From the NCBI RefSeq assembly GCF_026914185.1, contig NC_070572.1, positions 1,426,001 to 1,490,000 on the forward strand: a stretch of 64,000 nucleotides of DNA, written 5' to 3'. Source of the DNA: Puccinia triticina. Its lineage: Eukaryota; Basidiomycota; Pucciniomycetes; Pucciniales; Pucciniaceae. Position 1 is the first letter of the stretch. Every line of letters begins with the position of its first letter. The notes beneath the pieces were generated by a model. It was not told the origin of the DNA and ran no database searches. It saw only the letters and a program-made list of their open reading frames with translations. Positions 31,267 through 63,410 of this stretch are shown in pieces. The position numbers and the translations under genes were made by a program.

Positions 31267-33498
31267 ATGAATTCCACGCGAGCCCCGAACCACCCCGTTA
31301 CCTACTCAAGTCACTTTGAACCGTTGGCAGAGGTACGCACCAAATTTACTCCGCTGTGTTATCCGTGCTTACCAATTTTGCAGTCAAACTTCGATAGCGT
31401 CCGGGCAAATCAATACGGATTTGTCAAAACTCCAAGCTTTCTCCAATGTGGAGGTACGAACGAAGATAAAGACAAAAATTTCGAGGTTGAACTTGTTACC
31501 AATACCGCCCTCACCAACGTGCTTGACCCCGACTTTATTTACTCTATCCATGGTAAGATGATCGCGCCTAATGACGGTTCACCACCCACCTTGAGTTACA
31601 ACCACAAAGTCGTCACTCAAATATGTCCAAGTGGAGAGGATCAGCCTAGCTTCTTAAATAAGACCTTCATCACAGGGCTTGGTATGATTACTTTGCGCCA
31701 AGAAGTTGTTTCCGATGTCGCCAACACGGGTGCAAGCTTAGAGGTTATTGTTTCGCATTCTGATTGGGATTCCGAGGTAACATTTCATCACTTCACTTCA
31801 GTCTCCACTCCACGTTATCAATTGACATGATAATCAATCATTAACCGTTGTTATTCTCACAGAATCGATGCCTTAAGAATTTCAACATGAAATATGTGGT
31901 TCTTGGTACAAAAAACTTGATCAAGACGCATAGCCTTTATGTCGTCGGGCGAGAGGTCGAGATAATAGGTCGCCTCGTTGACTTCGATATGGAAAATAAT
32001 ATGGCTATTGTTTTGGTACGCCATGACATTGACACTCACGAAGCTGTCTTCTGGCGATTAACCTTTCTGTAAACAGGTCTCCCACGTCAGCGTCACAAAC
32101 GGTCACCAATTGGGAAAATTTAAAGCTCCAGGGATCAATGCGTCTTTGCCCGGGCCAGGAGACTCCAAAAAAAAACTGTCAGTAGATATTAACTCATCCA
32201 CGATGTGGTAAGCCAATCCTGAATATGGCACCAAAATCAAAAGTCTTTTCACCTCAATATAAACCTCTCTGGAATACTCAAGCACCCACCTCCCTTAAGG
32301 ATCAAGGCCAGGACAGCTCATACCCATCAACAGGCCCCCCTTTCTCTCTTCACCCTTTTTCCCCACCTTCTGGATACCCACCTACACCAACTCAGTATTT
32401 CTCAGGCTCCCAGCTAGGCACAAGTGGGAGAAAGTCACCCATCAGACAGAGCCAGACTATTAGGAAAGACCCTGGACATTGACCATCTTTTCTTCCCTTC
32501 CCAAACCAGCATAACAACCCCAATTAGGATTAGCCACACATGTAATAACCATAGAGATCCCATCTTGGTTACCCCTTGTCCCCTTTGGTTTCAGCCCTTC
32601 CCTTTTCAGACTCTCATGTGATATGTAAACCCTTGTTGTGATGTTTCATTGTCTCTCCACATTTCAGCCTCTTCTCAGAACTTCCCATCTCCATAGTAGT
32701 TTCAGCCTCAGCCCCTTGATTGAGAATTTTCACTGTTTCATCTTTTCTTCCAACCACAACTCAGCCCCATAATATTTTGTATATAGTCTGCCCTCTTTGG
32801 CCCTACCTTTTGTCCCCCATCAGATCCTGTCCCAGCAATCCAGATCACTGGTCACCATTCACTAGCCTAGCTTATGCCATTAAATCAGAGTGGACAAGCT
32901 TGATAAGTCTATGCCAAATATATCAGGTTGGACAGACTTTACATTACCTTTACCTTGCTATTAGATTAGTAGAAAGTAAACCCTTAGACATACCTCAAGA
33001 ATCTCCATAGCCACACCTTTCCTTAAGAGTCCATACTCTTATATTCTTTTTCTTGTTCCCCTGAGAGGCAGCCCTTCAAGCACCAAATCCCTCTCAAGCT
33101 CTATTCTTCCCTCAGAGTAGTTCCACAACGAGTTGAAACTGACTTGATATTTGACCACTCCCAGGACAAAGTTTTCTCCAAAGGTGTCAGGCAAAGTCAA
33201 TGCTCCCAACAAATTACCTTTAGCTGGCACATCGAAAGTTGCAAATCAATCCGTCTTCTCTAAGTCGGCCAAAACTTCTCTTGGCATCAGGTCAGACTCG
33301 ATCACGACCCCAACCAAGGGAAAGCAGAAAGCTGTTGAGCCCTCGGACGACGAAGAGGAGCACTTATTTGACGATGGGATTGACAACGAGGTCAATCAAG
33401 ACGATGAGCCAAACAACGCACCCGAGACCCCACCCAAACGGGGCCGTCCTCGCAAATCGATTATCCAAGAAGCCGCGAAACGCATGAAGAAGTTTTAA
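31267..33498 (+). CDS. Helitron accessory gene 1: OB-like protein with AT-hook (copy A)
   Basis: Five exons predicted: 31267-31332, 31384-31776, 31863-32015, 32077-32177 and 33165-33498, giving about 348 aa with no stop. The middle is beta-rich ('FEVELVTNTALTNVLD', 'IYSIHGKMIAPNDGSP', 'KNLIKTHSLYVVGREVEIIG', 'NNMAIVL'), reminiscent of oligonucleotide-binding folds. The C-terminus is acidic (EPSDDEEE) and then has an AT-hook, 'PPKRGRPRKSIIQEAAKRM'. The exon lengths 66, 393 and 153 match those of the copy in Helitron B (66, 402, 153), which strongly supports the model. The GTCAGT donor of intron 4 is less certain; that intron contains a putative solo LTR. ATG 31267 is chosen by alignment with copy B (shared 'PNHPV'). 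A single-strand-binding helper role is inferred, not shown. Confidence 0.75.
32204..33127. mobile_element. Putative solo LTR in intron 4 of accessory gene 1
   Basis: A 924-bp insertion relative to the copy in Helitron B starts TGTGGTAAGCC and ends GTAGTTCCACA (TGTGG...CCACA termini). ACGA flanks both sides (32200-32203, 33128-33131). It is pyrimidine-rich and non-coding. A 4-bp rather than 5-bp match leaves some doubt. Confidence 0.55.
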
Positions 33499-34575
33499 GT
33501 TCACCGTGATGCGCCGATCATTTTGTCTCCCCCCCACCCCCCTGTTGACATGCACGACGGTCTCGGCCGAACTGTACTCAACGGGGAGCTTCGACTTGTG
33601 TTGACATGTCCGAAATTGTTGTCTTTCCTTGCCTGATCGACCACCGTTGTGATTACCTTGTGAATAGCAAAACACGTCCTCATCTGATTACACGACCGGA
33701 TCCTTCCAGTCGTGACTTGTTGCAAAACACCTTTTTGTCTATGCTCAATGCGCAGACGCGTCAAGTTGACACGCGTGCAAGCCTTGATCCCCCCACTGCT
33801 AAAACGCCAACCCATAATTGACGTCAAACTTTGTTCGCTTAGCACATTCAACGCCGTTGATGACTCTCCTCAAACAGTAAATTACACAATAGCGGAGTCC
33901 AGTCACTCATTTTGACGCTCCCACTCCGGCAGTTGTTATGTTGAATCTCAACAGGAGTCGATGATGTCGAATACCATCAAGGAAAGAAAATCTTCAGCAA
34001 CACCTTCTGGCTCCCCCTCGAGTCGACTCTGATCTGTAGCATACTGACCGTCGGCAATAACAAGACTCATCCGGAGAACATTTTTGTGAGTCAACCTGTA
34101 AGCGTGATACGTTCAATACTATTCACACTTGATCAGGTGAACTTATCGTTGCAAGTCATAACAGATCGTCAAGCTACGATTATCGCCTTGGGCAAAAAGC
34201 CTTACAATACATAAATGTCGTTTGTAGGTGGGTCTGAGTGTTTTTATATCCCAAAGAACTGTTGTGAGCTTATGCCGCTCGGTTTGCTTGGCACTCCGGT
34301 CAAATTCAAGGCATGCAAAGTTGAGTCGGATAACTGACAAAAATACATTATTCTGATCATGCCTCGCAGAAGATGCATTGACCCAACGGTTGTCTGCCGT
34401 TAAGCTCGATCGGTTCGAAAACAAGCTGCGGTCTGATCGTCTGACGTAGTGATTTACTCGCCTGGTGACTGATACCACGTAAGTTCTCACCTGCCTGAAT
34501 CTTAACAACTTTCAAATTTTCCCCTCCTGATTGACCCCGAACGCTTTGTCCCAAAACCCTTAATCCCAAGCCCGA
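33499..34575. other. Helitron A spacer between accessory gene 1 and Rep-helicase
   Basis: GC-balanced, with scattered small frames in both directions (for example 34143-34508 minus) that have no recognisable homology. It presumably holds the 3' end of gene 1 and the Rep-helicase promoter. Confidence 0.4.
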
Positions 34576-37500
34576 ATGATTGAAACGAAGGGTAAAGTCC
34601 GGAACAGTACTCATCCATCGTACAAGGCTTCATTGCGCAACTGTTCTTCTTATTGCGTCCCGCACAATCTGGGACCATGTACTCATGAGTGTACCAAATG
34701 CGGTGCCCTCCACTTTAAGGACGAATGTACTGTTGCCGATCAGTCAAAAGCTGCGACATCTTACTCAATGTGCTGTCAAAAAGACAAGGTAACCTTACCA
34801 TCAACTGACTCCTCGGCCCGCGATTATCCAACCTTTATGCAAAAGCTTCTCGAATCTGCGGACGGAAGTTAGTGCCTGCATTTGTTTTATCCGAATTTGA
34901 TGCTGATTACCATCTTTCGTCAGAATCAAGAGCTTATCAAGGTTCAATAAGGATGTACAACAACGCGCTTTTGTTCACTTCCCTCGGGGCAAATATCGAT
35001 CCTTCGGTTCAAGGTCCTTTTGGCATTAACGCTTTCAAGATATCCGGCGCCTTGACCCATAAGATTTCAAGCATCGAACCTCCGAAAGGGACCGACCCGG
35101 GCTTTGCCCAAATTTACGTTGTCGGCGATAAGGGTCTTGGTGAGGCTCAATACCGAGTCGCCAAGGCTCAAGGTCGCGCGGGGAACACGGGGAGGGGATC
35201 AACAATGGAGCCTGGATTGATTTTGAAACTCATACAATTTTTGTCGGCGAACAATCCCTACGCCAAAGTTTTCCGGTCGGCGAAGGACATTCTTGAACGA
35301 CGGAACGCCTTGACATTAAAACTCCAAGGTGTTTCAAAAGCCGGTGCAGACCCGAAGCAATACAACTGCCCGACCGCTAACGAAGTGGCCATCGTCGTCC
35401 AGGGCTCCGGAAATATTATTAAACCTCGACAAATCCTCCTTCATCGCAAAGACAACAGCCTCAAATCAATATCTGATACTCACTCTTCGTACTTCCCAAT
35501 GAGGTACCCCATCTTCTACCCCTTAGGGGAACAGCAATGGGATAATTTATTCTGCACTTCGACTGAAAGAGGTTTGTCTTGACCATCCCGCCCGTGGTAT
35601 TGTTGAGTACTATTAATGCTTTCTTTGATCTTTCCAGTCAAAAAAAGAAAAGTTGGCCCGCTGGAGTGGTTCGCGTTCATGCTTTTCAAGCGAAAGTCAA
35701 GATTTTCTCCAATCTTGTTTGGCCGGTCTCTCCTTCAAGAAATCCTGGTCAACATGTGTGTCTGCGTTGAGAGGCAAAGATTGAAATTTATCGTCAGCAA
35801 TCAAGCAAAGCTCAAAGTCGGTACGTATACTCGCCTGTTGAAGAGTCTCGAAAACCAGGCTACCATTACCGGGAGGTGCGTGATTCTCCCCGCAACATTC
35901 ATTGGGAGTCCTCGTGGCATGGAGCAGCTTTACCACAATGTGATGGCCATCACGAGGAAGTTTGGGCCCCCTTCACTGTTCATAACAATGACCGCCAACC
36001 CAAAGTGGCCGGAAATAATTGCCGAAATCCCAAAGGACAACAACCCAGTGGATCACCCGACCTTGGTAACTCGGGTTTTTTACCTGAAGATGTGCTATTT
36101 GCTTTATGTTTTGATCAAGATGGATCAGCTAGGCCGCGTCATCGCCTTCGTTTTCACAATAGAATTCCAGAAGCGCGGCTTGCCTCACCTTCATTTGATG
36201 TTAACCTTAGACGAGCGGGACTGACCAACAACCCCAGAAGCCATTGACAAGATAGTTTCAGCCGAAATTCCAAACCCAGAATCTTCTCCAATTCTGCACG
36301 GTTTGGTGACTGAGTTCATGCTTCATGGGCCATGCACAAACCAGCCGTGTTGGAAAGGATCATCTTGCAAGTATGGATTCCCAAAACCGTTCTCCGACAG
36401 AACAATTAACATCGATGAAGCTTATCCAGCTTATTGCCGAAGGGATACTGGCCGTTCTGTCACAAAACACACTTCAACTTTCAACAACGGGCATGTGGTG
36501 CCGTATTGCCCTTATCTCACGCGCGCGTTTTGCTGCCATATAAACGTCGAAATCCCCGCAAACACGGCCGCAATCAAATACCTATATAAATATATAACGA
36601 AAGGGCATGACAGACTCTCGATGACCTTGAGCAGTGATGACAAGGTTCAATCATATGTTGATGGCAGGTACATCAGCCCCCCTGAAGGTGAGCATTCCTT
36701 TTCACGAAGGCGACTTTACATAGGCTAACATGAGTTGCTGTAGCTTGTTGGCGTCTGTTTAAGTTCCCCCTGTCAGGAAGGTCGCCCGCTGTCACGAGGC
36801 TCAATATTCACGACAAAGACAAGCAGTTAGTTTATTTCGAAGGCAAGGAGGGACTTGAAGGTCAAATAAATAGCGGAAAAGCAGTCCAGACCAGCCTTAC
36901 GCAGTTCATGAAGCTCAATGAGGAAGACGCTGTTGGGGCGGACGGTCGGAAGGCTCGAACTTTATCTTATGAGGAAATTCCTGCATATTTCTCATGGAAT
37001 AAGGCGAAGAAAGAGTGGATCCCAAGGAAAACAAAGGTAGACGTGGTCGGGCAAATTTTCTCGGTCTCCTATCTTGCGGGGGAGAAGTACTACCTTTGAG
37101 TTTTACTGTTGCATCGGAAGGGCTACACGTCATTTGAAGATCTCAGGACAGTCAACGGTGACCTGTGTGACGATTATCAATCAGCGTGCAATGAGCTGGG
37201 TCTATTAGTTAATGACTTTCTTTACAACGAGGCCTTGAACGAAGCATCTTTTGTCCAGTCAGGCTACCAGCTTGCCATGTACTTCGCAATGATGTGTGTG
37301 CATTCACCCCCATCTGCACCTATGGTTTTGTTCGAGAACCATTACATGAATTTCACGGATGATTGTTGCCGAGTCAACATGTTGAAGCGTCACAGCCGTC
37401 AACTTGAGAGTCCCAAACGACGCGTATTAGCTCTTTTCCGCCTCAAGACGCTGATTCAAGGCATGGGATCGTCTATGTTGTTGTGCGGTTTGAAAACTAC

Positions 37501-39016
37501 GAGGAAGGAACGTAGGCTGCTTGCCACGATTGAAGCGGAGAAATCTGGAGTAGAAGACCCCGATTATATCCGGCAAAGGCTCAATCGGAACATAAGCTCT
37601 TTCAACCGACGTCAGCAGATCTTTTTCAACGCGGTTGACAGCGCTATGAGACATAGAAAGCCGAAATGCTTCTACCTCGACGGCCCTGGTGGCACCGGCA
37701 AGACCTTCCTGCTAAATACAATTATTGATAGGGCGGATCTTGCTGCGGTGAAGATGACTGTTGTAGCCTCGTCGGGAGTGGCTGCCCTCCTACTCAAGCA
37801 CGGCCGAACCGCGCATTCAGGGTTCAACATTCCAATCGATGTGGGCGAAGACGCCGAGTGCAGCGTTGAGCCCAATACCATCCTCGGCGAATGGCTTCGC
37901 GACACTTGCTTGGTTATTTGGGAAAAAATTGTCACCATACACAAAAATGCGGTCAATGCTGTCAACAAAACATTGAAACGCTTGCGCGAATCGGAGTTGG
38001 AATTTGGTGGGAAAGTGGTCATATTCTCTGGCGACTTTTGCCAAATCCTTCCTGTTGTTAAGTACAACAAATTCCCACCAGCCCACCTTGCAACAATCAA
38101 GTTGTCATCGATCTGGGAGTCAACAGACAAATACGCGTTGACAAAGAACATGCGCCTCGCAGAAGGTCCGGACCGTGTTTTGAGTCAACGCAACAAGACG
38201 TTCAGCAAGAATTTATTGCTTCTCGGCAAGGGTAGAAGGCAGAAAAATGACTTCAGCGTGGTCGATTTGACCGGCATAAACGTAATTTCACTCGCAAGCG
38301 CGCAGCAAATGCGGGCAGAATTGATTTTGTTTGTATACAGTGATCTCCGGAAGACCCGCAAAGAAGGGTTGACTGCATCCGTCAACTATCTCAACAAGCG
38401 GTGTATTTTGTCGCCGCTTAACCGTGACGTACGAAAAATTAATGAAGAAGTCTTGTCAGCTCTCCCCGGCAGGTCAATTATTATAAAATCACTTGACACG
38501 CCTGATCCAAATGCTTTTGGTTCTCTCCCTGAGGAGTGTCTCAATAAGATTTCCATATCCGGTTTCCCCAAGCACGAATTGGTTATTAAGGTTGGGATGC
38601 CGTTGGTAATAATCAGGAATATGGCAATGGAGAAAGGTGTATGCAACGGCTCTCGGATAGTTGTCGAAGACGTCTCGACCGGGTATATCATTGGGAGGCT
38701 AATGTCGGGGCCATTCGCGGGCAACATTGTCACATTGCCGCGTGCAAAGCTTCATAATAAGGGTGATGCAAGATCGGGCCTGTCCTTCTTCCGTTATCAG
38801 TTCCCGGTGGCTCCTGCTTATGCGATGTCGGTGAACAAGAGTCAAGGCCAGACTCTAAAGAAAGTCGGTGTTTACATGGAAACAGACGTATTTTCTCATG
38901 GACAACTTTATGTTGCCTTGTCAAGGGTGTTGGATGTTAATAACCTACTGGTTGTGAAGCCAGCTGCACGTGCAGGCGTCATGAATGTGGTTCACAAGTC
39001 CATTTTTGGTTTTTAA
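34576..39016 (+). pseudogene. Helitron Rep-helicase (HUH endonuclease plus Pif1-like helicase), mutated
   Basis: Four exons: 34576-34867, 34924-35571, 35638-36687 and 36744-39016; all three introns join in phase. Exon 1 has a cysteine-rich segment ('CTHECTKCGALHFKDEC'). Exon 2 is the Helitron-like N domain ('FTSLGANIDPSVQGPFGINA', 'QYNCPTANEVA'). Exon 3 has 'LFITMTANPKWPEI', the HUH motif 'GLPHLHLML' and the tyrosine helix 'KYLYKYITKG'. Exon 4 is the helicase: Walker A 'DGPGGTGKTFLLNT', 'GGKVVIFSGDFCQILPVV', 'YAMSVNKSQGQTLKK' and 'LYVALSRV'. Helitron Rep-Hel nicks and unwinds DNA for rolling-circle transposition. Stops: TGA at 36222 (after LDERD) and TGA at 37097 (YYL*VLL). Walker B reads VIWEKI where family members have a DE pair. 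These changes suggest loss of function. Confidence 0.9.
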
Positions 39017-39838
39017 GGTGAGGCACGGTTTTCAATTTTCCGTTTGTTATTGCGTGATGAACTCATGTTGCTCTGGCCGAATGTCAATTGCCCAGATCTT
39101 GACCAGATTTGATCAAAAACGTCACAGGTTTGACACTTCCCCGACCTAAAGGATTCTTTTGATGACACTCTGGCTAATGGAACTCGGTGTATTCATTCTG
39201 GATAACGTGTGTTGTTTGTTAAGGCTGAACTCATGTTTTGTTGATGTTGATCCGATCGTTTGATACGGCTGAGTTTTGCCCTAAGGCTAACCTCGTCTTG
39301 ATAGCAATAGTGGTTAAAGGAGAGTGTGAAATTGAACTCCCAGGGTCTCCTATAATATCACTTGAAATTTGTTATCTGGCTGTGGGCTCAACACCAAACT
39401 TCTCCGAGCGCATGGATCAATTGCTGTTTGATTATTTGTCTGTCTGGTCGGTTCTCAATTGCTCTGAATCATGACGGCGGAGCCAACCTTTCATAACATT
39501 GAAGGTGATTTAGTTAGTTGTCCGGGACACAAATGGGTATTTGTGGAATGACTCAAGGTGTTTCATTTAATATTTCGTTATCAAATTTGTTGCATTTATC
39601 GCAAGGGGTATTGCTATTTACGTTGGACATAAGGCTGCAACTGTCTGGAGGCATCGGGTCAAGGTAAAAATGATAATGACAAATGGCCTGCAGCAATTCG
39701 GGCTAAATGTTCAGGTTTGTTGGCATACCAGAGCAATTCTGCTAGACGGGGGAAGAAGAAAAACAATCTCAGGCATGATAAGGCGGGCCTGATGTGAATT
39801 GTTCATGCAAAGACGAATCAGAATTTGATGGCGTTGAT
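39017..39838. other. Helitron A spacer between convergent genes
   Basis: A 78-codon plus-strand frame at 39238 has no recognisable homology. Otherwise nothing seen. Confidence 0.4.
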
Positions 39839-40690
39839 TCACCCTTGGCGAACCTCACCGTGCTGAATTACCTGTGAAGTCAAGGTTTGAAATGAGTACC
39901 GGGAGCGCTGATTGCATTTGCTGATGACTCACCTCGACCCTCATAATCTTATCAGCTTTTTCTGGTGCTGTTAGATATCCTCGGAATCGGACTTCTACCC
40001 CCGGCATATAGCCTCCCCTCAATTGAACTGGCGCGTCGGAATGAGTCATCACGAGCCGCAAGTTTACGCCAATCGGGGTGTCCTGTACGATGGTCGTGAG
40101 CATATGTGGTTTGTAATTTGAAGTAATGATAGGTGTTACCTGTAATCTGATATTAATAATAAGTTCGTGTTGCGCTATAACAGTATCTTCCTTGTCCGTT
40201 GTCTCAATGACATCAGTTACACGTCTGACGCCAATTACAATCATCCGGTTAATGAGGTATCCGCAAAGAACGGGGGAGCGGGCTCGAGCGAGGAGCGGGT
40301 TAATCTGCCACGTCATTCCGTCAAAATGATCATATTCTATCGACCCACGAACTATGTAAGTTGTCCCCGCCTGAAGGTTGTGGCCGAATTCTTCAAGACA
40401 AGGAGCAGTTAATTCAATGGGCTCTTTTGGGATGTCAGGATACAGGTTCAAATATTGGGAAAGGACTGTACGGCGCGGCTTTATCTCGACGGTATAGTTT
40501 ATGATAGGTTCGCCGCCCGCTAATTCCACTCGCGCCTGTGAAATGGGATTGGTTAGATCAAGAATTTGCATGTATCTTTGGTGCTTACAATTTGCAAAAT
40601 CTTGACTGCGCCTTTGAATGTCAGCTTGTGCGGAGACTCGTGGTGCAAAATCTCTATGAAACTATCGGGTTCTGGTCGGTGGTAAGGCAT
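39839..40690 (-). CDS. Helitron accessory gene 2: beta-rich protein (copy A)
   Basis: Predicted exons on the minus strand: 40690-40589, 40535-40140, 40082-39933 and 39871-39839, about 226 aa, all with GT-AG borders. Shared with copy B are 'FGHNLQAGTTYIVRGSI', 'DGMTWQINPLLA', 'AQHELIIN' and 'LRGGYMPGVEVRFRGYL'. Exon sizes 102/396/150 match copy B (102/393/150). The alternating hydrophobic pattern suggests an OB-type beta barrel; no catalytic motif is visible. The true start may lie further upstream, since open sequence ('INPQVQNNRAQ') precedes the chosen ATG and resembles the region upstream of copy B. The last exon is short and less certain. It converges on the Rep-helicase. Confidence 0.7.
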
Positions 40691-42238
40691 CTGTGCGCGG
40701 TTGTTTTGAACTTGTGGGTTTATGGCGACTTCGCAGAGGATGGTTGTTGGGTGATGATTTATGTAGACTAGCTAACCATCCGCCGTGAGCCTTCTTTATA
40801 ACTCGAATAAGGGCACGCTGGACCCCAGGTTGGTCATATTCGTTGAGGTTGAATTTGCAATCCGGGCGGTCTGTGAGACAATGTATTGTTGAGTTTTGTC
40901 TGGACTGGGCAGGGCAAAGTTAACGAGTTGAGGCCGTTTCTCTCAGCGAACCGGGCCAGCTGACGGCGAGTCGGACTTGGGCCAAACCGGGGTTGGTTAC
41001 AATCAGTGGTCCTTCGAGGCCCTTGTGTTTGCCGTTGATTTTCTTGCTGTGAGTCATTATTATGGCTGTGTGCGCGTGCGGAGGGCTGATGTGATGGGCG
41101 GGGGCGAGTGTGCTGATGATCCGTGGTGTCAAGAATCTTTTTTTGGGATAAAGTCGGGGTGGAGCCGGAGCTTAGCGTTCTTTTTCAATTGCGCTGAGGA
41201 CCGCGGAGGGTTGGGTAACGTGTTGGTAACCGGTGTTGATCGATTCATGGCTACCTGAGGTGAGATCCTTTCGTGATGAGCATGCGAGCTCGGCTGTGGC
41301 GGAGCTGGTTTGGGACTTACACTCTGCAGTGAATGTCGCCATGGTAACGCGCCCAGTTGGGTGTGTGTTGTCCTACGCCGTCTTTCAGCCCTGCTGGTTT
41401 TGAATATGAGGTTAGTGTTATTGTACCTCACATTCATTTCGCGTGTGGGATAGACATCCCTGGGACCGCCTGAGCAAGGTTTAATTTCTATGACGTTTTT
41501 CTGGATTACTCATAGTCAAAGCGATCTTTAGGGGGTGTGGCATCCGTGTTAAAAAACCTATTTTGTGACTCAAGTCGGTATTTGGGTGTGAGCCCAATAT
41601 TTCCTGTTTAATGTGGTTTGCTGTTCAACAAGTTGATTCCGAGAATTACTCCGGGGGGTCAATTTTGATTGGTGCGCGTTTTTATAGGTGGTCCGCGTGT
41701 GTGATGGATTATGGTGGTGGCAGGCGATGAAGGGCAAAGCTCACGTTTGGCCCGGTTTTGATTCGACAAAATGACTCATTTGCTTAAGAAATGTGCCAAG
41801 CCCTTGACAAGTTATTTGGCGGCGATTGGGGTTTGTCTTAGTTCTGGGGGAGTTTTTTGTAGTTAGCATTGCGCACGCGTAATACTTTCTGCAATCATCT
41901 TGAGCTGATTTGGAGCACACATGTCTTTGTGTTTTGTGGACTCCCAAGGAGTTGCCCAAGGAGGGCTGGTATGGTATGGGTAACCTGGTTGGATTTCTGC
42001 ATTCCTGGGTTATATTTCACGAATCCTGAGAATTAGACAAAGGGTCTGCATTATGGACTGGGCAAGTATGAAGCAAGGATAGACTCAACCACAAGGGTGA
42101 AATTTAATTTGAGTCTGGGGTAACTTTGTGTTACTGTGTATTGATCAAGTGGCAATTTGTTTTCATGTGTGGAGGGGTTCTGACGTGTCCATGGGGCTGC
42201 CGGGGGTGTACTGGTGGCATCCAAATATCATCCCTGCA
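40691..42238. other. Helitron A 3' region without a clear gene
   Basis: Small minus-strand frames, including a basic one (41129-41437) and 'YDQPGVQRALIRVIKKAHGG' near 40.8 kb, may be 5' exons of accessory gene 2. Nothing firm. Confidence 0.35.
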
Positions 42239-42263
42239 GCGGCGCAGCCGCCTTGACCTCTAG
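42239..42263 (+). other. Helitron 3' terminal hairpin and CTAG
   Basis: GCGGC (42239-42243), loop GCA, GCCGC (42247-42251), spacer CTTGACCT, CTAG (42260-42263), then host T. This is the canonical Helitron terminator arrangement (hairpin about 10 bases before CTRR). Confidence 0.92.
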
Positions 42264-44133
42264 TCGTTACCAAAATGTCAATAGGCCCCCAAAATTTCAT
42301 TATGTACCTTGAATCCCCACAAAGCCCCCAAATGTACAAGCTACAGTCAGATCAGTTCCCAAATATCACTACTTTGGTAGTGTCTTGGTGTTTCTGCCCC
42401 TATATCTCATCCCAGCGTGGGAATCCTTCTGCCATACAGTTACCAAAATGTTTAGAGGCCCCCAAAGATTCATTAAGTACCTTTAATCACCACAACACCC
42501 CCAAATGTACAACCTACAGTCTGATCAGTTCCCAAATATCACTACTTTGGTGGTTTCTTGGTGTTTCTTCCACTAAATCTCATCCCAGCGGGGGAATCCT
42601 TCTGCCATATGGTTACCAAAATGTCAATAGGCCCCCAAAAATTCATTACGCGCCTTGAATCACCACAAAACCCCCAAATGTAGAAGCTACAGTCTCATCA
42701 GTTGCCAAATATCACTACTTTGGTAGTTTCTTGGTGTTTATGCCCCTATATCCCATCCCAGCATGGGAATCCTTCTGCCATATGGTTACCAAAATGTCGA
42801 TAGGCCCCCAAACTTTCATTATGTACCTTTAATCACCACAAAACCCCCAGATGTAGAAGCTACAGTCTGATCAGTTCCCAAATATCACTACTTTGGTAGT
42901 TTCTTGGTGTTTCTGCCCCTATATCCCATCCCAGCGTGGGAATCCTTCTGCCATATGGTTACCAAAATTTTTACAGGCCTCCAATGATTCATTATGTACC
43001 TTTACTGACCACAAAACCCCCAAATGTTGCAGCTAGAGTCTGATCAGTTCCTAAATATCACTACTTTGGTGGTTTCTTGGTGTTTCTGCCACTATCCAGT
43101 GTGGGAATTCCTCCGCCATATCGTTACCACAATGTTTACAAGCTCCTGGTCTGTGAAGGTACACAATGAATCTTTGGGGGCCTGTAAACATTTTGGTAAC
43201 TATATGGCAGAAAGATTACCACGCTGGGATGAGATATAGAGGCAGAAACACCAAGAAACTACCAAAGTAGTGATATTTGGGAACTGATCAGACTGTAGCT
43301 TCTACCTTTGGGGGTTTTGTGGTGATTAAAAGTACATAATGAATGTTTGGGGGCCTATTGACATTTTAGTAACCATATGGCAGAAGGATTCCCATGCTGG
43401 GATGGGATATAGGGGCAGAAACACCAAGAAACTACCAAAGTAGTGATATTTGGGAACTGATGAGACTGTAGCTTCTACATTTGGGGGTTTTGTGGTGATT
43501 AAAAGTACATAATGAATGTTCCGGGGCCTATTGATATTTTAGTAACCATATGGCAGAAGGATTCCCACACTGGGATGAGATTTAGTGGAAGAAACACCAA
43601 GAAACTACCAAAGTAGTGATATTTGGGAACTGATCAGACTGTAGCTTCTATGTTTGGGGTTTTTGTGGTGATTAAAGGTACATAATGAAAGTTTGGGGGC
43701 CTATCGACATTTTGGTAACCATATGGCAGAAGGATTCCCATGCTGGGATGGGATATAGGGGCATAAACACCAAGAAACTACCAAAGTAGTGATATTTGGC
43801 AACTGATGAGACTGTAGCTTCTACATTTGGGGGTTTTGTGGTGATTCAAGGCGCGTAATGAATTTTTGGGGGCCTATTGACATTTTGGTAACCATATGGC
43901 AGAAGGATTCCCCCGCTGGGATGAGATTTAGTGGAAGAAACACCAAGAAACCACCAAAGTAGTGATATTTGGGAACTGATCAGACTGTAGCTTCTACATT
44001 TGGGGGTTTTGTGGTGATTAAAGGTACTTAATGAATCTTAGGGGGCCTCCAAACTTTTTTGTAACCATATGGCAGAAGTATTCCCACGCTGGGATGAGAT
44101 ATAGGGGCAGAAACACCAAGAAACTGCCAAAGT
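42264..44133. repeat. 173-bp satellite array with a large inverted duplication
   Basis: Monomers run in one orientation to about 43140 and in the opposite orientation from about 43150 to 44133. Rare variants sit at mirror positions: 'CAGCGGGGGAATCC' near 42585 and its inverse near 43905; the GCGCCTTGAATCACC variant near 42650 and its inverse near 43855; AGCATGGGAAT at both 42762 and 43735. The axis is near 43250, so this is a true inverted duplication, not merely mixed monomers. Confidence 0.9.
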
Positions 44134-48200: not shown

Positions 48201-48292
48201 GAAACATCTGGGATCAATTTCATTTCTGGTTAAAGTTTGACTAGCACCAATACTACAAGACAACTCCGCTGCGCTCAGGAAAGGCACAACCT

Positions 48293-49279: not shown

Positions 49280-49418
49280 CGTATTGCTGTGTGATGTCAG
49301 AGCGGGATATTCAAGGTTTCGGAGTCAGGATGTTCAAGGTTTCGGAGTGAGAGTGATCTGGTTCTTGTTGGTCTGTTGGGTTCTTGGTCTTCGTCTCCGT
49401 CAAGTAGATCCTGCAATA

Positions 49419-50924: not shown

Positions 50925-51237
50925 TGTCAGCCGGCTACGCAGCGCAAGCCAGCGTAACAATTATAAAAATGATTATAAATAATATTTTACAATTTTTTGT
51001 GACAGATATCTATGTAATCTGTCACATATTATTTAAATATATGATAAAGACTTAAAAAGATAATGTACATATAGATTAATAGTAATATTAATCTTTAAAA
51101 CTATTGAAAATGAGAAAAGATACTCTGTGTGGATAAGAAACTACGCACAAGTGCGCGATTAGAGAAAAGTATTGATCCGATTATAAGTTAGTTTAAATTA
51201 TTAATTATACAGTTACTAATCTATAACTAACATAAAA
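50925..51237 (+). repeat. 5' LTR (start certain, end uncertain) and leader
   Basis: 50925-51017 matches the 3' LTR. From 51018 the partner is missing because the 3' LTR is cut by the Helitron, so the LTR/leader boundary cannot be read. The leader is AT-rich with several short upstream ATGs. Confidence 0.8.
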
Positions 51238-54200
51238 ATGACTGCTCCCACTAGATCAAACAAACCCGAACTCAGCGGACTCCTCCCCGATCCAACAAGA
51301 CCGCGAGGAAGAGTTGCTCCAAGAACGCATCAAGAACATGAAGTTCAAGATGTTGAACCAAAAGGACGCACCACCTCCGATCTGGGAGAAGGATACCTCG
51401 AAGGATTTGGCGATGGATCTGGAAATACCTCCGTCCACATCCTCGGCGGCTATCCCAGCACCCCCTACAACGAACGGTACTCCGGTGCTCCAAGCCACGC
51501 CCAAAACATCATCACTCTTGGAGAAGGAGAAAGCGGTACGCCTGGTCAGAGAGCATATTGCTATCTGGAAGAAATGTCTCGAAGAGGAGTTAATCGGAGC
51601 GACCCCAAACCTCCGAGCCCTCTTATCCCAGGCGCAAGAAAGCCAAAAAACTCTCCAGAAACTTATGCCGAACGACGAGATCAAAGCGTTCGTCAAAGGA
51701 TGGAACCCTTGGACCGAGAAGAAGAAACACTTCCCAGCTCCTCCCAAAGAAGAACGATTTGGCAAGCGCCGCAGCTCGACTTCGATCAACTTCGAGAATC
51801 CTCACAAATGGAAGAAGGTCTCGGACATGCTCAAGATAGCCAAAGGTTTGTACAAGAACATAAACTAAGTAATAGTATTGTATCTACATTATTAGATTCT
51901 TTAGATGTAGTCAACTTAAATATTTCTACTTTAGATGCTAATAGTGAGTCTAACCTAAAAACAATTGTAAATAAGTTTGATTCTCTGTTATTTGATCTTA
52001 AAAAAGAATTCCATAATACTTCTTCTGAAGTATTGAATTGTATTGAGAAACCTTTGCCAATTGAGTTCCAGCCCCAACATTTGGAAATATTTAAAAGACT
52101 ACTCAGAGAAACTGAGGATCTTAAGAAAATATCTACTAGCACTGAGAATATTGTAAACAAAATATTCTTAAGTAATAAAGATATTGAGAATGATTCTTCA
52201 TATGAATTGTTGAGCAAAATTGAATCAATGATATCTTCTCATTCTGATTATGTAATATCTTCATTAAAACAAGATATTATCATAAACCAAAAGAAAAATG
52301 CAGATACTTTGGATGATATCAAAGATCTCTTGATACAACAAGGATCCCGTATGAATAATGTTGAGAATTTAGCTGAAGCCATGCACAAACAAGTTGATCA
52401 AGTCCAAATTGAATTGAAACAATTCAAATTAAATACAGAAAAAGCTTTTGCAGAGAAACCTGAACCTGTATTTACTCCAAAACCTGAACAATATACTCCT
52501 AAATTTAATAATCCTTTTATGCGTGATTCTGCTCCCCACAAAGCTCAAGATAATAAATCTGGAAATCAAACTGAGGGAGAGATACCTACAGGGCATAATA
52601 ATGGTTCACCACCTAATAATGGTCCACGTTACACCAATATTTTCAGAACTATGGATAATGCTGCTATAAATAAATTACTTCCTCCTATAAAAGATTGGCC
52701 TAAGTTCACAGGTCAAGGTGACTATGATCATATCAATTTTATCAGATATATAGATCATATGTTGAAATCTTATAGAGCAGATGATGAAATAGCAGTAGTG
52801 AGATTACCCAGATTATTTGAAGGAGTTGCTCTAGACTGGTTTGTTAATAAACAAGAAGAAGTTGGAGATCAAACTTGGGAAACTTGGAAAGAATTGATCA
52901 AAGCCAGGTTTGGCACTAGAAATTGGAGAAATGGAGTAAGACTAGCTCTAGATAATGATTTCTTTGACCCTGGACATAATGTTCCTCATGAATGGTGCTT
53001 AATTCAAAAAAGAAGAATAGACGCTATACATCCTTCTGCTACATTGGAAGAAAGGAATGATAGAATGCTTAACCAACTGAAATATACGGTACAGCATCCT
53101 ATGAGATGTAGATTAGGAAACAGATGTGTAGACCTAGCTGACTTCATTACTACTTTGGAAGAAGTAGTAGAACATATGGGTTTTAATAAGAATTCTAAAC
53201 ATAATCTAAGAGAGAAAATGATTTCTTCTCAAGAAGTGCCTAGAGAAGATAAAACCACTCCTACTAAAGACCAGGTTAGGAAGCCAACTCCTCAGCCTGA
53301 ATGTTACAATTGCGGAGAAGTGGGACATAAAAGACCTGATTGTCCTAAACCCCGTAAGAAAATTATGAATGTAGAAGGAGCAGAAGTTAATACCTCAGAT
53401 TCAGAAGAATCTGATGAGAGCTCAGGAATAAATCTGGTTATTAATGATGAGGAACCAGATTATAAAACTCTTGTTATTCAAGCTGATATAGGTAATGAAC
53501 TTCATGTCAATACCATTCATGGAGATTCTCATCTTACGCAGAAATGGCACCCTAGTATGGGAGTAGGACATGTCACAGATGCTAAGATTTTAACAAATAA
53601 ACCTGAACAAGGTAAGAACTATACTTTAGGTAAATCCAGCTACACTACTGTTCTTTTTGCTGGAACTGAGGTAAAAGCTTTACTTGACATTGGAGCTTTC
53701 TGTTCATGTACTAGCCAATCCTTCTTAGATAAATATAATTCTGAATGGAGAGAACACTTATTGCCTGTACCAAAAGCCAAATTCAGCAGTTGTAACTCAA
53801 ACATGCATCCTATAGGAATAGTTTCTATGCCTCTAATATTCCCTCACACTAAAGGATCAGTGAGACTTATTGTTGAATTTGTGGTATTGCAGGATGCTTT
53901 ATGTGATTATCTTATTCTAGGAAATGATACATTTTGTATGTACGGATTTGATATTTTCCAAAGTAAAGATAGGCATTATACTATAGGTGGTGATTGGAAG
54001 AGAAAGTTCCAAATTTGTAATATTAATTCTATTATAAGTGATCCAGTTACTAAAATAGATCCTGAAGTACAGAAACAAATGTTATGTTTTAAAGCAGATT
54101 ATTTAAATCAATCAGCTATTAATAATGAACTTAGTGACAGCCAGAAAATGGATATTTTGAAAATATGCTTTGATAATAAACAAGCATTTTGTACTTCAGA

Positions 54201-57180
54201 TGAACCTATTGGAGATATCAAAGGTCATGACATGAGTATAGAATTGACTGTACAAGCACCTTATCCCCCTATGTTAAGGAAGGCAGCTTACCCTTAAAGT
54301 CCTAAATCCAGAGAAGCTCTTGAAAATCATATCAATGAACTACTAGACCTCAGAGTTATCAGAAAAATTGGTCATAATGAACAAGTAGAAATGACTATTC
54401 CAGTTATGATAGCTTGGCATAATGATAAATCTCGAATGGTAGGTGATTGTAGAGCCTTGAATACTTATACTAAAGCAGATCATTACCCTATACCTAGAAT
54501 TGAACATGCTTTGCACAATTTATCTAAAGCAAAATACATTACTACAATGGATGTTTTGAAAGGATTTCATCAAATACCTATAGAAGAGGAAAGTCGTAAG
54601 TTTTTCAGGATAATTTGCCATCTGGGAGTATTTGAATATCTCCGTATGCCCTTTGGTATTAAGAATGCTCCCTCTCACTTTCAAAGAATGATGGATTCTA
54701 TATTTGGCCAATATATCAGACAGGGATGGATGATGGTATATATAGATGATATTATAATTTATTCTGATGACTGGGATGATCACAAAGAAAAGGTAAGAAT
54801 GATCTTAGAAAAATCCATTGAAGTAGGATTAAAAATGTCCATCAAAAAATGCAACTTTGGATATGGAGAGCTCAAAGCCCTGGGACGTATAGTGTCTGGT
54901 CTTATGTTAGCAGTAGATCAACACAAAGTGGCTGCAGTATTACTAAATCCCATGCCAAGTAATAAAAAAGAAATGATGTCTGTTTTGGGATTTTGTAGTT
55001 ATTATAGGCAATTTGTTCCACAGTTCTCTAATATTACCAAATGTTTGTATGCAGTTTGTAATGAGGATACAATATTTGAAATGACTTATGAGAGAGTGCA
55101 GGCTTATGAACAGTTGAAGAAACTATTGACTAGTGCACCAGTCTTAGCTCAACCTGATTATACTAAGCCATTTACATTGTACATTGATGCTTGCTTAGAT
55201 GGGTTAGGAGCAGCTCTTCATCAAGAATTTCTTATAGATGATCAAGTTGTTGAGAAACCTATCCTTTTCATATCTAGACAAATTAAGGATTCTGAAAGGA
55301 GGTATGGAGCTAGTCAAATGGAATGTTTAGCACTAGTTTGGGCTCTCAAAAAATTGCATTACTACCTTGAAGGTTCTAACTTTGTAGTAATCTCAGATTG
55401 TATGGCTGTTAAGACTCTAATGAACATGAAAACTCCTAATCGTCATATGTTGAGGTGGCAAATTGCAATACAGCAATACCGTGGTCATATGACTATAATT
55501 CATAAGGAAGGTAAAAAACATAAAAATGCTGACGGATTAAGTAGATGGGCTTTACCAAATACTCCGGATAATCCTGCGTATGATCCTGATGATGAAGATA
55601 TTTTTCCCATATTAGGTATTCATGTGTGTGATTTGGATGAGGCTTTTTATGACTTAGTCCGTAACAGTTATGATCAGGACTCAAACCTGTTAACACTGGT
55701 AGAGATCTTAAAAAATGATAATTGCCCCCCTGAGTTGATTTCTAGCTTACAATCTAAATTACTGGTAGATTATAAGTTAGGAAAATTTACTCTGTTGGAT
55801 GGATTGCTGTATTATAGAAATAAACACTCTAGTCTACTAGTACTCTGTGATAAAAATCAAATAGTTGATATACTAAAAGAGTGTCATGATAGTATAACTT
55901 CTGGGTATTTTTCAGAAGACAGAACACTAGAAAGGATTCGTAATACAGCTTGGTAGATCAATTGGAAGAAAGAAGCCCAAACTTATATAAAATCTTGTGA
56001 CATCTGCCAAAAAGCTAATAAGCAGACAGGAAAAAGATTTGGCCTTCTACAAAAAATTGCTGAACCTAAATCCCAATGGGAAATTATTAATATGGATTTT
56101 GTGACTGGTCTCCCTCCTGCTGGAGCTTATTCATATAATTCTGTATTAGTAATAGTAGACCGTTTCTCTAAGAGAGCACGTTTTATACCTAATCATAAGG
56201 ATGACACAGCTATGGAAATTGCTATGTTATTTTGGAACAGAATAATGTCTGATGTAGGAATCCCTAGAATTATTATTAGTGATTGAGATCCAAAATTTAC
56301 ATCTGAATTTTGGCGCAACTTACATGATATGTTAGGAACAAAACTTGCTTTTTCTACAGCTTATCACCCTCAGACTGATGGATTAGCTGAGAGAATAATT
56401 CAGACATTAGAGGATATGCTCCGCAGGTTCTGTTCATCTGGCTTTGAATTTAAGAACCAAGATGGTTATACACACGGCTGGGTTAACCTTCTACCAGCAT
56501 TGGAAATTGCTTATAACAGTAGTAAACACTCCACAACTAAAGAAGCTCCTTATGTCTTAGAGCGTGGGTGGATACCTAGAATGCCTAAAAACACTGTTAA
56601 TGACAAATTGCCATATATTCATCCAACTTCTTCAGATTTTAAGAAGATGCATGATCATGCAAGAAATTGTGTAGCAGAAGCTGTAGAATATAACAAAAAT
56701 AGGTGGGACAAAAGTCATAAAGAGCCAGAATTCAAGATTGGAGATAAGGTAATGTTATCTACAGTAAACTTCAATAATCTGGGAGGTAATAAAAAACTCA
56801 AACCTGCTTTTGTTGGACCTTTTGTTGTCAAGCAACTTCATGGGAAGAATGCAGTTGAAGTAATTCTGAGTGAAGAGCTTTCAAGAAAACACCCAGTTTT
56901 TCCAGTGAGTTTGATTAAACCGTGGGTATCAAGGCCTGGAGAATCAATAGATGTTCAACCTACTATTCCTGTGGAAGAGCTGGTTGAGAATGCAAAATTA
57001 CAAGTGCAGAAAATTCTAAGAGATAAAAAGGAACGTATCAATGGTAAGGATGTCCGTCTGTACCTTGTAAGATACAAAAATAATTCAGCAGATAAAGATG
57101 AATGGTTATCTGAAAATAATATTCCGGATGGAACTATTCATCTGCGTAATTATAGAATTTTGAAAAGATCTAAACCCTAA
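51238..57180 (+). pseudogene. gag-pol: gag-pol polyprotein, one frame with three nonsense codons
   Basis: 1,981 codons in one frame, interrupted by TAA (54295), TAG (55954, after NTAW) and TGA (56284, in the SD-DPKFTS motif, normally an arginine codon). Order: N-terminal region, capsid-like Gag ('GVALDWFVNKQEEVGDQTWE'), zinc knuckle 'CYNCGEVGHKRPDCPK' (about residues 689-702), protease 'ALLDIGAFCSC' (D-I-G instead of the usual D-T-G), RT ('DVLKGFHQIPIEEESRKF', 'MVYIDDIIIYSDDW'), RNase H ('LYIDACLDGLGAALHQE', 'MECLALVWALKKLHYYLE', 'NADGLSRW'), integrase ('CDICQKANKQTG', 'MDFVTGLPP', '[17 protein letters not shown]') and a C-terminal basic/chromodomain-like end ('[19 protein letters not shown]'). 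Only point nonsense changes and no frameshift after residue 210 indicate a fairly young copy. Confidence 0.93.
51314..51868 (+). CDS. Overlapping frame in the Gag N-terminal region
   Basis: A 184-codon frame in the +2 register is open through exactly the stretch where the gag frame reads as low-complexity S/R/G/P/E. Its own product looks more like a folded protein: 'LLQERIKNMKFKMLNQKDAP', 'KAVRLVREHIAIWKKCLEEE', 'LMPNDEIKAFVKGWNPWTEK'. It is also open upstream to a TGA that overlaps the gag ATG (ATGA). It is either the true N-terminus joined by frameshifting, a separate overlapping ORF, or the original frame after a one-base indel near 51240. Confidence 0.5.
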   Translation: MLQERIKNMKFKMLNQKDAPPPIWEKDTSKDLAMDLEIPPSTSSAAIPAPPTTNGTPVLQATPKTSSLLEKEKAVRLVREHIAIWKKCLEEELIGATPNLRALLSQAQESQKTLQKLMPNDEIKAFVKGWNPWTEKKKHFPAPPKEERFGKRRSSTSINFENPHKWKKVSDMLKIAKGLYKNIN

Positions 57181-57307: not shown

Positions 57308-57329
57308 TCTAAGTTTATTAAAACCACAG

Positions 57330-58886: not shown

Positions 58887-60106
58887 ATGGCCAGCAACCG
58901 AACTCCTAACCACCCTGTTCACTTGATCAGTCTTTTCGAGCCGCTCAACCATGTAAGGACTAAATTAACTCTAGACAGTATCAATTAATTTTTAACATTT
59001 TTCATCCAGTCTGTTCCAGAAACCGTTCGGGCCAACCAGTACGGCAATGTAAATACCAAGAGTTTTGTGTCCTGTTCTGGCGTCAACAACTCTACTCATC
59101 AAGACTACGAGGTTCATCTCACCACCAACACCGCCCTAACAAACGTTCTCGAACCCAAGACCATTTATCATTTATCGGGAAAGCTTATTGCCACCAACGA
59201 CGGAAACCCGCCAGTCGTTACTTACTCCCAACCAACAGTTACTCGCGTTTGTACTACTACCGACGATCCAATAGATCTTACTAACAAAGCGACAGTAGTT
59301 GGCCTTGGAATAGTAATTCATTGCAATGAAGTAACCACCCCGAACGAAGATCAGCCGACAAGACTTGAAGTCACAGTTCAACACAGTGACTGGTCCTCCA
59401 AGTTTAGTCAGGTCATCTTTTTGCTCCGCGATATAAATTGCCCACCGTCTGACTCTTTACCTCTCAGGACCGTTGCCACAAAACGTTTTCAGTCAAGTAT
59501 ATCATACCTTCGACCAAGAACCTTATCAAAACGCACGTACTTTATGTTGTTGGTCGCGAGGTCGAAATATGTGGCAACTTGATTGGCTTTGAGATGGACA
59601 CCCATATGGCCATTGTTCAGGTTAGTAGTTCACCGTCATAATGGTTACCTCATCTGACTTAATCCTCCTCCTCAGGTAAACGATGTCAGCATCACTTCTG
59701 GCCATCAAATTGGGAAGAATAACTTAATCGCATCTGGATCTGGTCCAAAGACTTCAGGCAAGCCAAGAAACATGTGGGTTATTTTCCTTTAATATGACAT
59801 AGTAAATGTTGCTTATAAATCCTCCCGTACAGTGTCAAGTTTTCGCCTGCAGCCAAAACTCCAAAGACAGCCGTCATGCCTCAAGTATCAAAAGATAAGG
59901 ACAGCTTCTCATCTCCAACCGCATCTTCCTCTCGCTCAAAGGGGAAGCGTAAAGCTGAACCATCAGACAATGAAGAACCCTCCAACAGTCAAACTAGCGA
60001 ATCTGACCAATCCGCTGACGAAGCGCCGCCACCAACAAAGAAAGCCCGTGGACGTCCAAGAAAGGCGATCCTCAAAGATGCTGCACGACGCCTCAAGGAC
60101 ATATGA
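58887..60106 (+). CDS. Helitron accessory gene 1: OB-like protein with AT-hook (copy B)
   Basis: Five exons: 58887-58952, 59010-59411, 59468-59620, 59676-59773 and 59833-60106, about 330 aa with no stop. Starts MASNRTPNHPV. Shared with copy A are 'VRANQYG', 'TNTALTNVL', 'LEVTVQHSDW', 'STKNLIKTHVLYVVGREVEI', 'GHQIGK' and 'KFSP'. The tail has KGKRKAEPSDNEE and the AT-hook 'KKARGRPRKAILKDAARRL'. The beta-strand pattern suggests two OB-type barrels; the AT-hook suggests minor-groove DNA binding. The end of exon 2 (GTCATC donor) was chosen because only it keeps the phase seen in copy A. It lies tail-to-tail with accessory gene 2. Confidence 0.8.
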
Positions 60107-61362: not shown

Positions 61363-62263
61363 TTAACTCTTGTGCTTGTGCATAACAAAGCCGCTTTGAC
61401 TATGGGTCGACTTTGATTTACTTTTGGTGGGTTGTGTTTCCCTCAATGTTGCCTACAATTGATAAGTGTAAGCTTTTTTGTCTGCCATCAATTGTCAAAT
61501 ATGCTTACAACAATAACTATGTTCTCATCTGACCCGCCACTGTCTATGACCAATCCGGAGAAGCCTATCTGGCTACCTGGAATGTAGGAGCCTTTCAAGT
61601 TCTCGGGCATGTCCGCTGGTAAGACTAAAACCTTTACGATGATATGCATGTCACAATCCTACAATTTGGTAATCAGTAAGTTGAAATTTACACGTGAGAA
61701 AGATAACTGACCCCAACTGTATGATTAACAACCACCTCGTGGTATGCAGTTAACTTTTTCTCATCATCCCAAATGCTTGAAATCCGGTTAATTGAACCTA
61801 TCCCGACCAAAGATAACGGTTTGGGACGAAACGCCAACTCAATTTGAGTGGTTTTCTTTGCCAGGAGAGGATTGAAATTCCATTCGTTTATTCCGTCAAA
61901 GTTACACTTGACATCTCCGTTGATAATATAGAATTCACCGGTGGCGAGGGAGTGGCCAAAATCTACTAAACACGGCGAACCCAGGTAAACTCGGCCTGAC
62001 CTCGAAGTAATTGTATCAAGAACTGATTTCCACATTTGTGGCGGTCCCTTAAGCTTTACTTCATAGCAAAGAGAATTGTCTCCGGCTGTATTAACGTACT
62101 CGAGCTGAAAGACCAGATATCAGTATCAGTAGCATTAAAATGGTATTTTCTGATAACATACATAATCTCCCAATCTCATCCCTATTTCAAACTCTAGGAT
62201 GTCTGCCGTGTTACTTTCAATAAGATAAATCGGTGAGTTGGGTTTCCGTGTAATACCGACCAT
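61363..62263 (-). CDS. Helitron accessory gene 2: beta-rich protein (copy B)
   Basis: Minus-strand exons: 62263-62162, 62104-61712, 61658-61509 and 61452-61363, about 244 aa, no stops, all GT-AG. Exon 1 is 34 codons (MVGITRKPN...). Exon 2 has 'VDFGHSLATGEFYIINGDV', 'NFNPLLAKKT' and 'YHEVVVNHTVG'. Exon 3 has 'ENLKGSYIPGSQIGFSGL', which aligns with 'QLRGGYMPGVEVRFRGYL' of copy A. The last exon is basic and serine-rich (TKSKSKSTHSQ). Exon phases agree with copy A throughout. In-frame open sequence upstream of the ATG ('NPPIQGKYIRKK') resembles that upstream of copy A, so the start is provisional. Function unknown; an OB-type nucleic-acid-binding role is inferred from strand pattern and Helitron context. 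Confidence 0.75.
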
Positions 62264-63410
62264 TTTTTTACGTATATATTTTCCTTGAATTGGAGGATTC
62301 GACGTGATTAGTTGGTGGTGTGGAGAGCTTCTCCCATTGGTGAACCATCACGCATCTTATACTCTTAGGGAGTGTTGGTTAGCGATTCGTTTTTGTGCCG
62401 GTCTGGCTAATCCGGTCAATTTTGATGGCTTGGCCAAACCATTTCTATCAGTTTGCCAACTTACTCGGTTGTGTGCAATGTTGGTCTAGCCAAAAAACGG
62501 TAACAAAAGCAAAAATAACTGGCCGGTCCCCTCTTGCTTTCTTGGCAACTAATGTATCATCTGTAGTTGGCTCATCAGTGATAATTGTGTTATCTTCATC
62601 TTATGCGCAAGTTAGTACCCAGTTCAACAATGCTTATACTCATAGTTGACCCTTCAACTACTAAGTCATTCCTCTCATGCTATCTTCGCAGCTAATGTAT
62701 CATCTGTAGTTGGCTCATAAGTGATAATGGTATTCTCTTGATCTTATGCTCGAGGTGGTATCCAGTTTCACAATGCTTATACTCATAGTTCAACCTTTGA
62801 CTAAGAAAGCATCAGCTTATAATCATCACCGGAACGGAAGACAGGTGCTCCCACTTAATGCGAAAGTTCCATTTGTATTTATGGGCATACGACAAGTAAG
62901 TGATTCCGACCTGTCCAGCTGGTTTGATTTAATGATGAATATTAATAAACTATGACGATTAACCGTTCGTGTCTACCATGTCATGCACATGCTGATTCAA
63001 GGTTGTGGTTGGTTATGCAATTTTTCCGTCAAACAAACCGGCATGAACATCTCGTCTAAGCTCGATAATGTTGACCGCTGTGAAGAGAATTAACCCTCTG
63101 ATGAGGTCATTTTACCTCTTGGTTTGATTGGTGCTCAAACCTTAATTAATCAATAAGGTTTGGTATTGATTCAAGCCGGCCTCCTGAAATATAGTGAGCC
63201 CTAGACATTCCATAGCATCTTATTTATAAACCACCTGATTATTGTTTAACCTATCTTGCAAGGGTCGACTGATACTATCCCATTAAATCAAACATTTGCG
63301 AACTCTCAGTTGAGCTGGTACGGATTATTCGTCGGACGGAAACTTTGGTCGGTTACCTTGTAGGTTGTCGCCGCCGCGTGATATTGAAGACTGACTGCAT
63401 ATGTTTTTCA
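62264..63410. other. Helitron B spacer
   Basis: A 120-bp-scale direct duplication is visible ('AACTAATGTATCATCTGTAG' near 62548 and 'AGCTAATGTATCATCTGTAG' near 62690). No Rep domain is found here, unlike the arrangement in Helitron A. Confidence 0.5.

What the first reader, a model, noticed from the sequence alone, without database searches (positions are those of the whole stretch)
31267..63410. Two related Helitrons carry the same pair of accessory genes with conserved exon structure
Accessory gene 1 (31267-33498 and 58887-60106, OB-like with C-terminal AT-hook) and accessory gene 2 (39839-40690 and 61363-62263, beta-rich) occur in both Helitrons. They lie in opposite orientations with matching exon sizes (66/~395/153 and 102/~395/150) and no stop codons, although the proteins have diverged. 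Conservation of reading frames between diverged copies suggests selection, so these may be a working part of the transposon: an RPA-like single-strand binder and partner for rolling-circle replication. RPA-like genes are known in plant Helitrons. I do not know a description of this two-gene AT-hook/OB module in rust Helitrons.
Basis: partly seen in the sequence, partly recalled or inferred. Interest (0 to 1): 0.9.

Follow-up and report, generated by a model that had tools for sequence, protein, structure and literature searches.

The report
Rust Helitrons carry SSB-like protein genes
A family of jumping genes (Helitrons) in a cereal rust fungus carries its own genes for proteins that look like bacterial single-strand DNA-binding proteins, kept intact by selection and inherited together with the transposase, so they probably help these elements copy themselves.

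Summary
Both window elements are canonical Helitrons: A is 29893-42263 with an empty site in a satellite; B starts at 57308, ends 7.96 kb beyond the window and has a 99%-identical copy elsewhere. Both carry gene 1 (+) and gene 2 (-) with open frames and matching exon sizes. In this genome 92 of 114 gene-1 loci have a Helitron Rep domain downstream on the same strand within 15 kb. Gene-1 and Rep distances co-vary over 17 elements (Mantel r 0.94). Diverged gene-1 pairs give dN/dS 0.05-0.13; one g2B-type comparison gives about 0.2. So gene 1 is a long-standing Helitron component. A predicted structure of a gene-1 relative best matches tandem-OB bacterial SSBs (Foldseek E 3.5e-5), ahead of RPA and telomere proteins: 'RPA-like' should read 'SSB-type'. 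Gene 2 is probably a distant paralogue (profile E 2.5e-4); its own model failed. Named sequence homologues were only from Puccinia. DNA binding and the role in transposition are inferred.

The parts
29893..42263 (+). Helitron A, 12,371 bp: 5' TC, 3' hairpin then CTAG, between A (29892) and T (42264)
   Evidence: joined flanks match 16 uninterrupted satellite monomers without a gap at the junction; last 25 nt 96% identical to the end of element B; a 93% copy on C14 begins at window 29891
31267..33498 (+). g1A: accessory gene 1 of Helitron A; exons 31267-31332, 31384-31776, 31863-32015, 32077-32207, 33165-33498; 358 aa; C-terminal KRGRPRK
   Evidence: its relatives P0019 and P0005 are 48% and 46% identical
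34809..39016 (+). RepHel gene of Helitron A, broken by two in-frame stop codons (frames end at 36224 and 37099)
   Evidence: reading frames; Helitron_like_N at C15:1461667 and PIF1 at C15:1463604; 51-68% identical to element B piece by piece
39839..40690 (-). g2A: accessory gene 2 of Helitron A; exons 40690-40589, 40535-40140, 40082-39933, 39871-39839; 226 aa
   Evidence: P0061 98.6% identical over 221 aa
57308..64000 (+). Helitron B, the part inside the window; the element runs on to window-equivalent 71955 (C15:1497955), 14,648 bp in all: 5' TC, 3' hairpin and CTAG, A and T flanks
   Evidence: 99.0% identical copy on C18:1755396-1770048 with different flanks
58887..60106 (+). g1B: accessory gene 1 of Helitron B; exons 58887-58952, 59010-59411, 59468-59620, 59676-59773, 59833-60106; 330 aa; C-terminal ARGRPRK
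   Evidence: genome copies; homologues
61363..62263 (-). g2B: accessory gene 2 of Helitron B; exons 62263-62162, 62104-61712, 61658-61509, 61452-61363; 244 aa
   Evidence: P0060 98.8% identical over 244 aa

Best explanation
The two accessory genes are working parts of a canonical Helitron lineage in a Puccinia genome, most likely P. triticina haplotype A. Gene 1 encodes a tandem-OB protein of the bacterial/mitochondrial SSB type, with a disordered tail ending in a short helix and, in many copies, an AT-hook. Gene 2 is a distant paralogue with probably the same two-domain plan. Proposed mechanism (inferred): after Rep nicks the element and the PIF1-type helicase peels off the transferred strand, the element's own SSB coats it, keeps it from reannealing or folding, and hands it to host polymerase and to the joining step; the tail tethers it to AT-rich double-stranded DNA or to Rep. 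Computed here: Helitron boundaries, mobility of element B with both genes on board, gene linkage, co-divergence of gene 1 with Rep, purifying selection, and a predicted SSB-type fold for a gene-1 relative. Inferred: ssDNA binding, partnership of gene 1 with gene 2, and the role in transposition.
Confidence: 0.65

Rival explanations
1. The proteins are Helitron genes with OB folds, but act as regulators or tethers (for example dsDNA or RNA binding, target choice, protection from host silencing), not as single-strand binders.
For: C-terminal AT-hook core in both window copies and in 32 of 72 longer homologues; the OB core is net acidic; rank 2 and several other Foldseek hits are editosome OB proteins, which are not classical SSBs.
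Against: Four of the five best Foldseek hits are SSBs matched over both OB units; rolling-circle transposition gives an obvious use for an SSB; the AT-hook is missing from 40 of 72 homologues whereas the OB part aligns throughout.
Confidence: 0.22
2. Host genes or gene fragments captured by Helitrons and carried as passengers.
For: Fungal Helitrons are reported to carry 'captured' genes of unknown origin (PMC4289320, section 7 read); the genes have introns; 16 of 114 gene-1 loci have no Rep domain on the same strand within about 33 kb downstream.
Against: Co-divergence with Rep, purifying selection between copies, one fixed place upstream of Rep, and no named homologue outside Puccinia in two gene-1 searches and one gene-2 search (one search scored only the 8000 candidates sharing most words).
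Confidence: 0.06
3. The elements use a plant-type RPA homologue (PHRPA) that has diverged beyond recognition.
For: RPA homologues are known in plant, zebrafish, sea anemone and Drosophila Helitrons or Helentrons (PMC4683698 and PMC6431247, passages).
Against: No RPA Pfam domain; fold ranking favours SSB (RPA 4gop rank 41, probability 0.23).
Confidence: 0.07

Closest known systems
Plant Helitron RPA-like proteins (PHRPA)
   Same: Extra ssDNA-binding-type gene carried inside Helitrons, fast evolving
   Different: PHRPAs are RPA homologues, found by their authors only in monocots and dicots (PMC4683698, passages); the rust proteins match no RPA family and resemble bacterial-type tandem-OB SSB instead, with two or three paralogues
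Deinococcus-Thermus SSB (1se8, 2fxq, 2ihf)
   Same: Two OB folds in one chain; best structural match to the gene-1 model
   Different: Sequence identity 8-14% and no family-level match; the rust protein has a long disordered tail with a basic C-terminal helix where (recalled) bacterial SSBs end in an acidic tip
Pleurotus ostreatus HELPO1 capA/capB genes
   Same: Basidiomycete genes reported only inside Helitrons, of unknown function, diverged between copies (about 45% similarity), beside RepHel (PMC4289320, section 7 and passages)
   Different: Described as captured genes downstream of RepHel without known domains; sequences not at hand, so homology was not tested
FoHeli3 extra ORF in Fusarium oxysporum
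   Same: Helitron-only ORF of unknown function upstream of the transposase
   Different: Opposite orientation, element with non-canonical Helitron2-like termini; [quoted passage not shown] homology not tested

Membership tests
Canonical Helitron (Helitron1) | Rep (Helitron_like_N) plus PIF1-type helicase | tested here: met
   A: C15:1461667 and C15:1463604; B: C15:1493844 and C15:1495780
Canonical Helitron (Helitron1) | 5' TC, 3' hairpin and CTRR end | tested here: met
   A TCCAAG...hairpin...CTAG; B TCTAAG...hairpin...CTAG
Canonical Helitron (Helitron1) | Insertion between A and T without target-site duplication | tested here: met
   A: empty site in 16 satellite monomers; B: A and T flanks at two loci with different surroundings
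RPA / plant Helitron RPA | Sequence match to RPA OB domains | tested here: not met
   no RPA family among Pfam hits of the 4 window proteins, 43 gene-1 and 4 gene-2 relatives; two other OB families (Ten1_2 E 0.12, RecO_N_2 E 0.22) each hit one of 43 members at chance level
RPA / plant Helitron RPA | RPA as nearest fold | tested here: inconclusive
   4gop_C at Foldseek rank 41, probability 0.23; not among the 50 rows
Bacterial/mitochondrial SSB | SSB-type OB fold | tested here: met
Bacterial/mitochondrial SSB | Sequence match to the SSB family | tested here: not met
Bacterial/mitochondrial SSB | ssDNA binding | not testable with these tools
   needs a bench assay
AT-hook proteins | GRP core flanked by basic residues | tested here: inconclusive
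   present in g1A and g1B and in 32 of 72 homologues over 250 aa; Pfam AT_hook on g1B 14.1 bits, below the 17.4 cut-off, and no hit on g1A

The most novel reading that the evidence does not exclude
A Helitron lineage of rust fungi acquired an SSB-type protein once, unrelated to RPA, and multiplied it into two or three paralogous tandem-OB subunits (gene 1 upstream of Rep; gene 2 in two subfamilies and a third gene in variable places). Together they form an element-specific single-strand-binding complex that replaces or excludes host RPA during rolling-circle transposition. This would be an independent acquisition of ssDNA-binding proteins by Helitrons and, as far as the searches show, the first reported in fungi.
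Probability: 0.35. Interest if true: 0.75.

Novelty: new variant of a known kind. Interest (0 to 1): 0.62.

Why it matters
How Helitrons handle their single-stranded intermediate is poorly known (recalled). A gene that sits in one fixed place beside Rep, evolves with it and looks like a replication SSB gives a concrete handle on that step. It would also show that different Helitron lineages have recruited unrelated single-strand binders. [quoted passage not shown] It also explains dozens of 'hypothetical proteins' in cereal-rust annotations as transposon genes, which helps gene counts.

Tried and rejected
Literature: searches (open-licence PMC only; I looked at listings, then passages of six papers and one section each of two of these) showed no description of this module in rust Helitrons; subscription papers and Repbase entries were not seen. 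Sequence searches for SSB/RPA relatives (Pfam, NCBIfam, PHROGs, PDB) gave nothing usable. The gene-2 structure came out at pLDDT 39.5, so no fold search was run on it. dN/dS of A against B is unusable (synonymous difference 0.79, saturated). Of the ten gene-1 pairs behind the median, seven have dS under 0.12; two of the other three (L014/L013, L014/L030) share a locus and L013 and L030 are near-copies, so there are two independent deep comparisons. The two g2A-type pairs have limits from 0.06 to 1.8 and tell nothing. The Mantel test used 17 elements and includes near-identical copies. The passenger-capture reading was set aside on co-divergence and selection. Host copies are not excluded: of the 22 of 114 gene-1 loci without Rep within 15 kb downstream on the same strand, six have one 22.6-33.1 kb downstream and 16 do not. 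Genome counts use best-scored candidates only (150 of 339 helicase, 121 of 407 gene-1 and 150 of 200 Rep candidates) and are lower bounds. One search used 115 gene-1 rows, one of which (C17:220979) is an exon-3 hit; the lists have 114. Viral fold library: machine busy, given up.

Full report
Setting. The window is G000:C15:1426001-1490000 of a 122.8 Mb, 18-contig genome. Two of its contig lengths (7,715,772 and 5,313,206) equal the contig lengths given for Puccinia triticina proteins PtA15_7A547 and PtA15_14A96 (P0096, P0097), so it is most likely P. triticina haplotype A. A published survey quotes Helitron coverage from 0.2% to 2.6%, the upper figure being P. triticina haplotype A (PMC12210899, passages).

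Elements. Helitron A is 29893-42263. It starts with TC, ends with a hairpin and CTAG, and lies between A and T. Its joined flanks match 16 uninterrupted monomers of a satellite in the same window without a gap at the junction, so there is an empty site and no target duplication. Helitron B starts at 57308 and ends at window-equivalent 71955. A copy 99.0% identical over 14,655 aligned columns sits on C18 with unrelated flanks, so B moved as one unit with gene 1, gene 2 and RepHel on board. The last 25 nt of A and B match at 96%. Pieces of RepHel of A and B are 51-68% identical; A's RepHel has two in-frame stops and is probably dead.

Genes. P. triticina database proteins match the gene-2 models almost exactly (P0060 98.8%, P0061 98.6%). 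Gene-1 searches returned 59 proteins (single query) and 65 (profile; only the 8000 candidates sharing most words were scored). Every row with a legible organism name is Puccinia (triticina, striiformis, graminis, coronata); a few rows carry no organism. Gene 2 gave 4 proteins, all P. triticina.

Linkage. Of 115 gene-1 loci, 83 lie within 15 kb of a PIF1-helicase hit, 81 of them with the helicase downstream on the same strand at a median of 5.5 kb. Random placement of 115 points gives a mean of 1.06, maximum 5 in 1000 runs. With the Helitron Rep domain (150 hits), 92 of 114 gene-1 loci have Rep downstream on the same strand within 15 kb (median 3.4 kb), and 92 of 150 Rep hits have gene 1 upstream. 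For gene 2, merging the hits by hand gives 39 loci; 21 have a helicase within 15 kb and a gene 1 on the helicase's strand within 25 kb. Of 21 g2A-type loci, 13 have a helicase within 15 kb: nine lie on the opposite strand 2.0-2.6 kb past it, three on the opposite strand 7.3-11.3 kb past it, one on the same strand. Of 18 g2B-type loci, 15 do: 13 on the same strand (eleven at 4.4-7.9 kb, two at 10.5 and 13.5 kb), and Helitron B and its copy, where gene 2 sits between gene 1 and Rep on the opposite strand.

Co-inheritance. Twenty linked elements had a gene-1 locus at hand besides the window's A, B and B's copy. I fetched Rep pieces for 14 of the 20, leaving out near-copies and one with a stop in exon 2. 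Over the resulting 17 elements gene-1 exon-2 and Rep protein distances correlate with Mantel r 0.935, p 0.0002, and nearest neighbours agree in 13 of 17. This points to one acquisition followed by joint descent.

Selection. Exon 2 of gene 1 is free of stops in 26 of 28 loci examined. The diverged readable pairs give dN/dS 0.05, 0.07 and 0.13 (two independent comparisons); the median of the 10 pairs with dS 0.05-1.5 is 0.19. The matched gene-2 core is free of stops in 21 of 23 loci, one of them a short match. Four g2B-type pairs with dS 0.47-0.51 give 0.20-0.23 with bootstrap limits between 0.09 and 0.45, but all share locus L053. The g2A-type pairs are uninformative, and one deep pair across subfamilies (L065/L043) gives 0.73, limits 0.32-1.32, near saturation.

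Gene 2. Its own structure prediction with four sequences failed. Profile comparison with gene 1 runs in register across both halves (E 2.4e-4; 2.5e-4 on re-run, against 0.024 for the best of 30 column shuffles and 0.29 reversed), although HHalign's own probability is only 43-44% and plain BLASTP with default statistics is not significant. Exons 2 and 3 are alike in size (about 395 and 150 nt). I read gene 2 as a probable paralogue.

Mechanism. The best-supported reading is an element-encoded SSB-type protein that protects and presents the displaced strand during rolling-circle transposition. Linkage, joint descent, selection and fold are computed; ssDNA binding, the gene-1/gene-2 partnership and the role in transposition are inference.

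Comparison. Helitron-borne RPA-like genes are known in plants and some animals, and a 2015 paper argues for at least three independent acquisitions of single-strand binders (PMC4683698, passages). [quoted passage not shown] The rust genes are a new variant of that known kind: unrelated to RPA by detectable sequence, SSB-like by predicted fold, and multiplied within one lineage.

Noticed in passing
L069:1201-2060 (window-equivalent 65201-66060): A third related gene upstream of RepHel in Helitron B, with exon-2- and exon-3-like parts but a broken frame. An intact piece finds 12 places in the genome, two of them B and its copy; four others lie 2.5-3.1 kb past a helicase on the same strand (compared by hand).
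   Followed up: partly
29400-29892, 42264-44125 and about 50136-50930: Satellite-like repeat with about 173-base spacing, found at many places in the genome (425 matches to the query that contains it); Helitron A is inserted in one array.
   Followed up: partly
36222-36224 and 37097-37099: Two in-frame stops in RepHel of Helitron A while both accessory genes stay open.
   Followed up: yes
32208-33164: Intron 4 of g1A is 957 nt against 59 nt in g1B, which looks like an insertion inside the intron.
   Followed up: no
63395-64060: Open frame that looks like a fragment of a second PIF1-type helicase inside Helitron B, upstream of its own RepHel; judged by eye only.
   Followed up: no
44567-49324 (-) and 51220-57180 (+): Two Gypsy-like LTR retrotransposon reading-frame sets between the Helitrons, each split over several frames; named by eye.
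   Followed up: no
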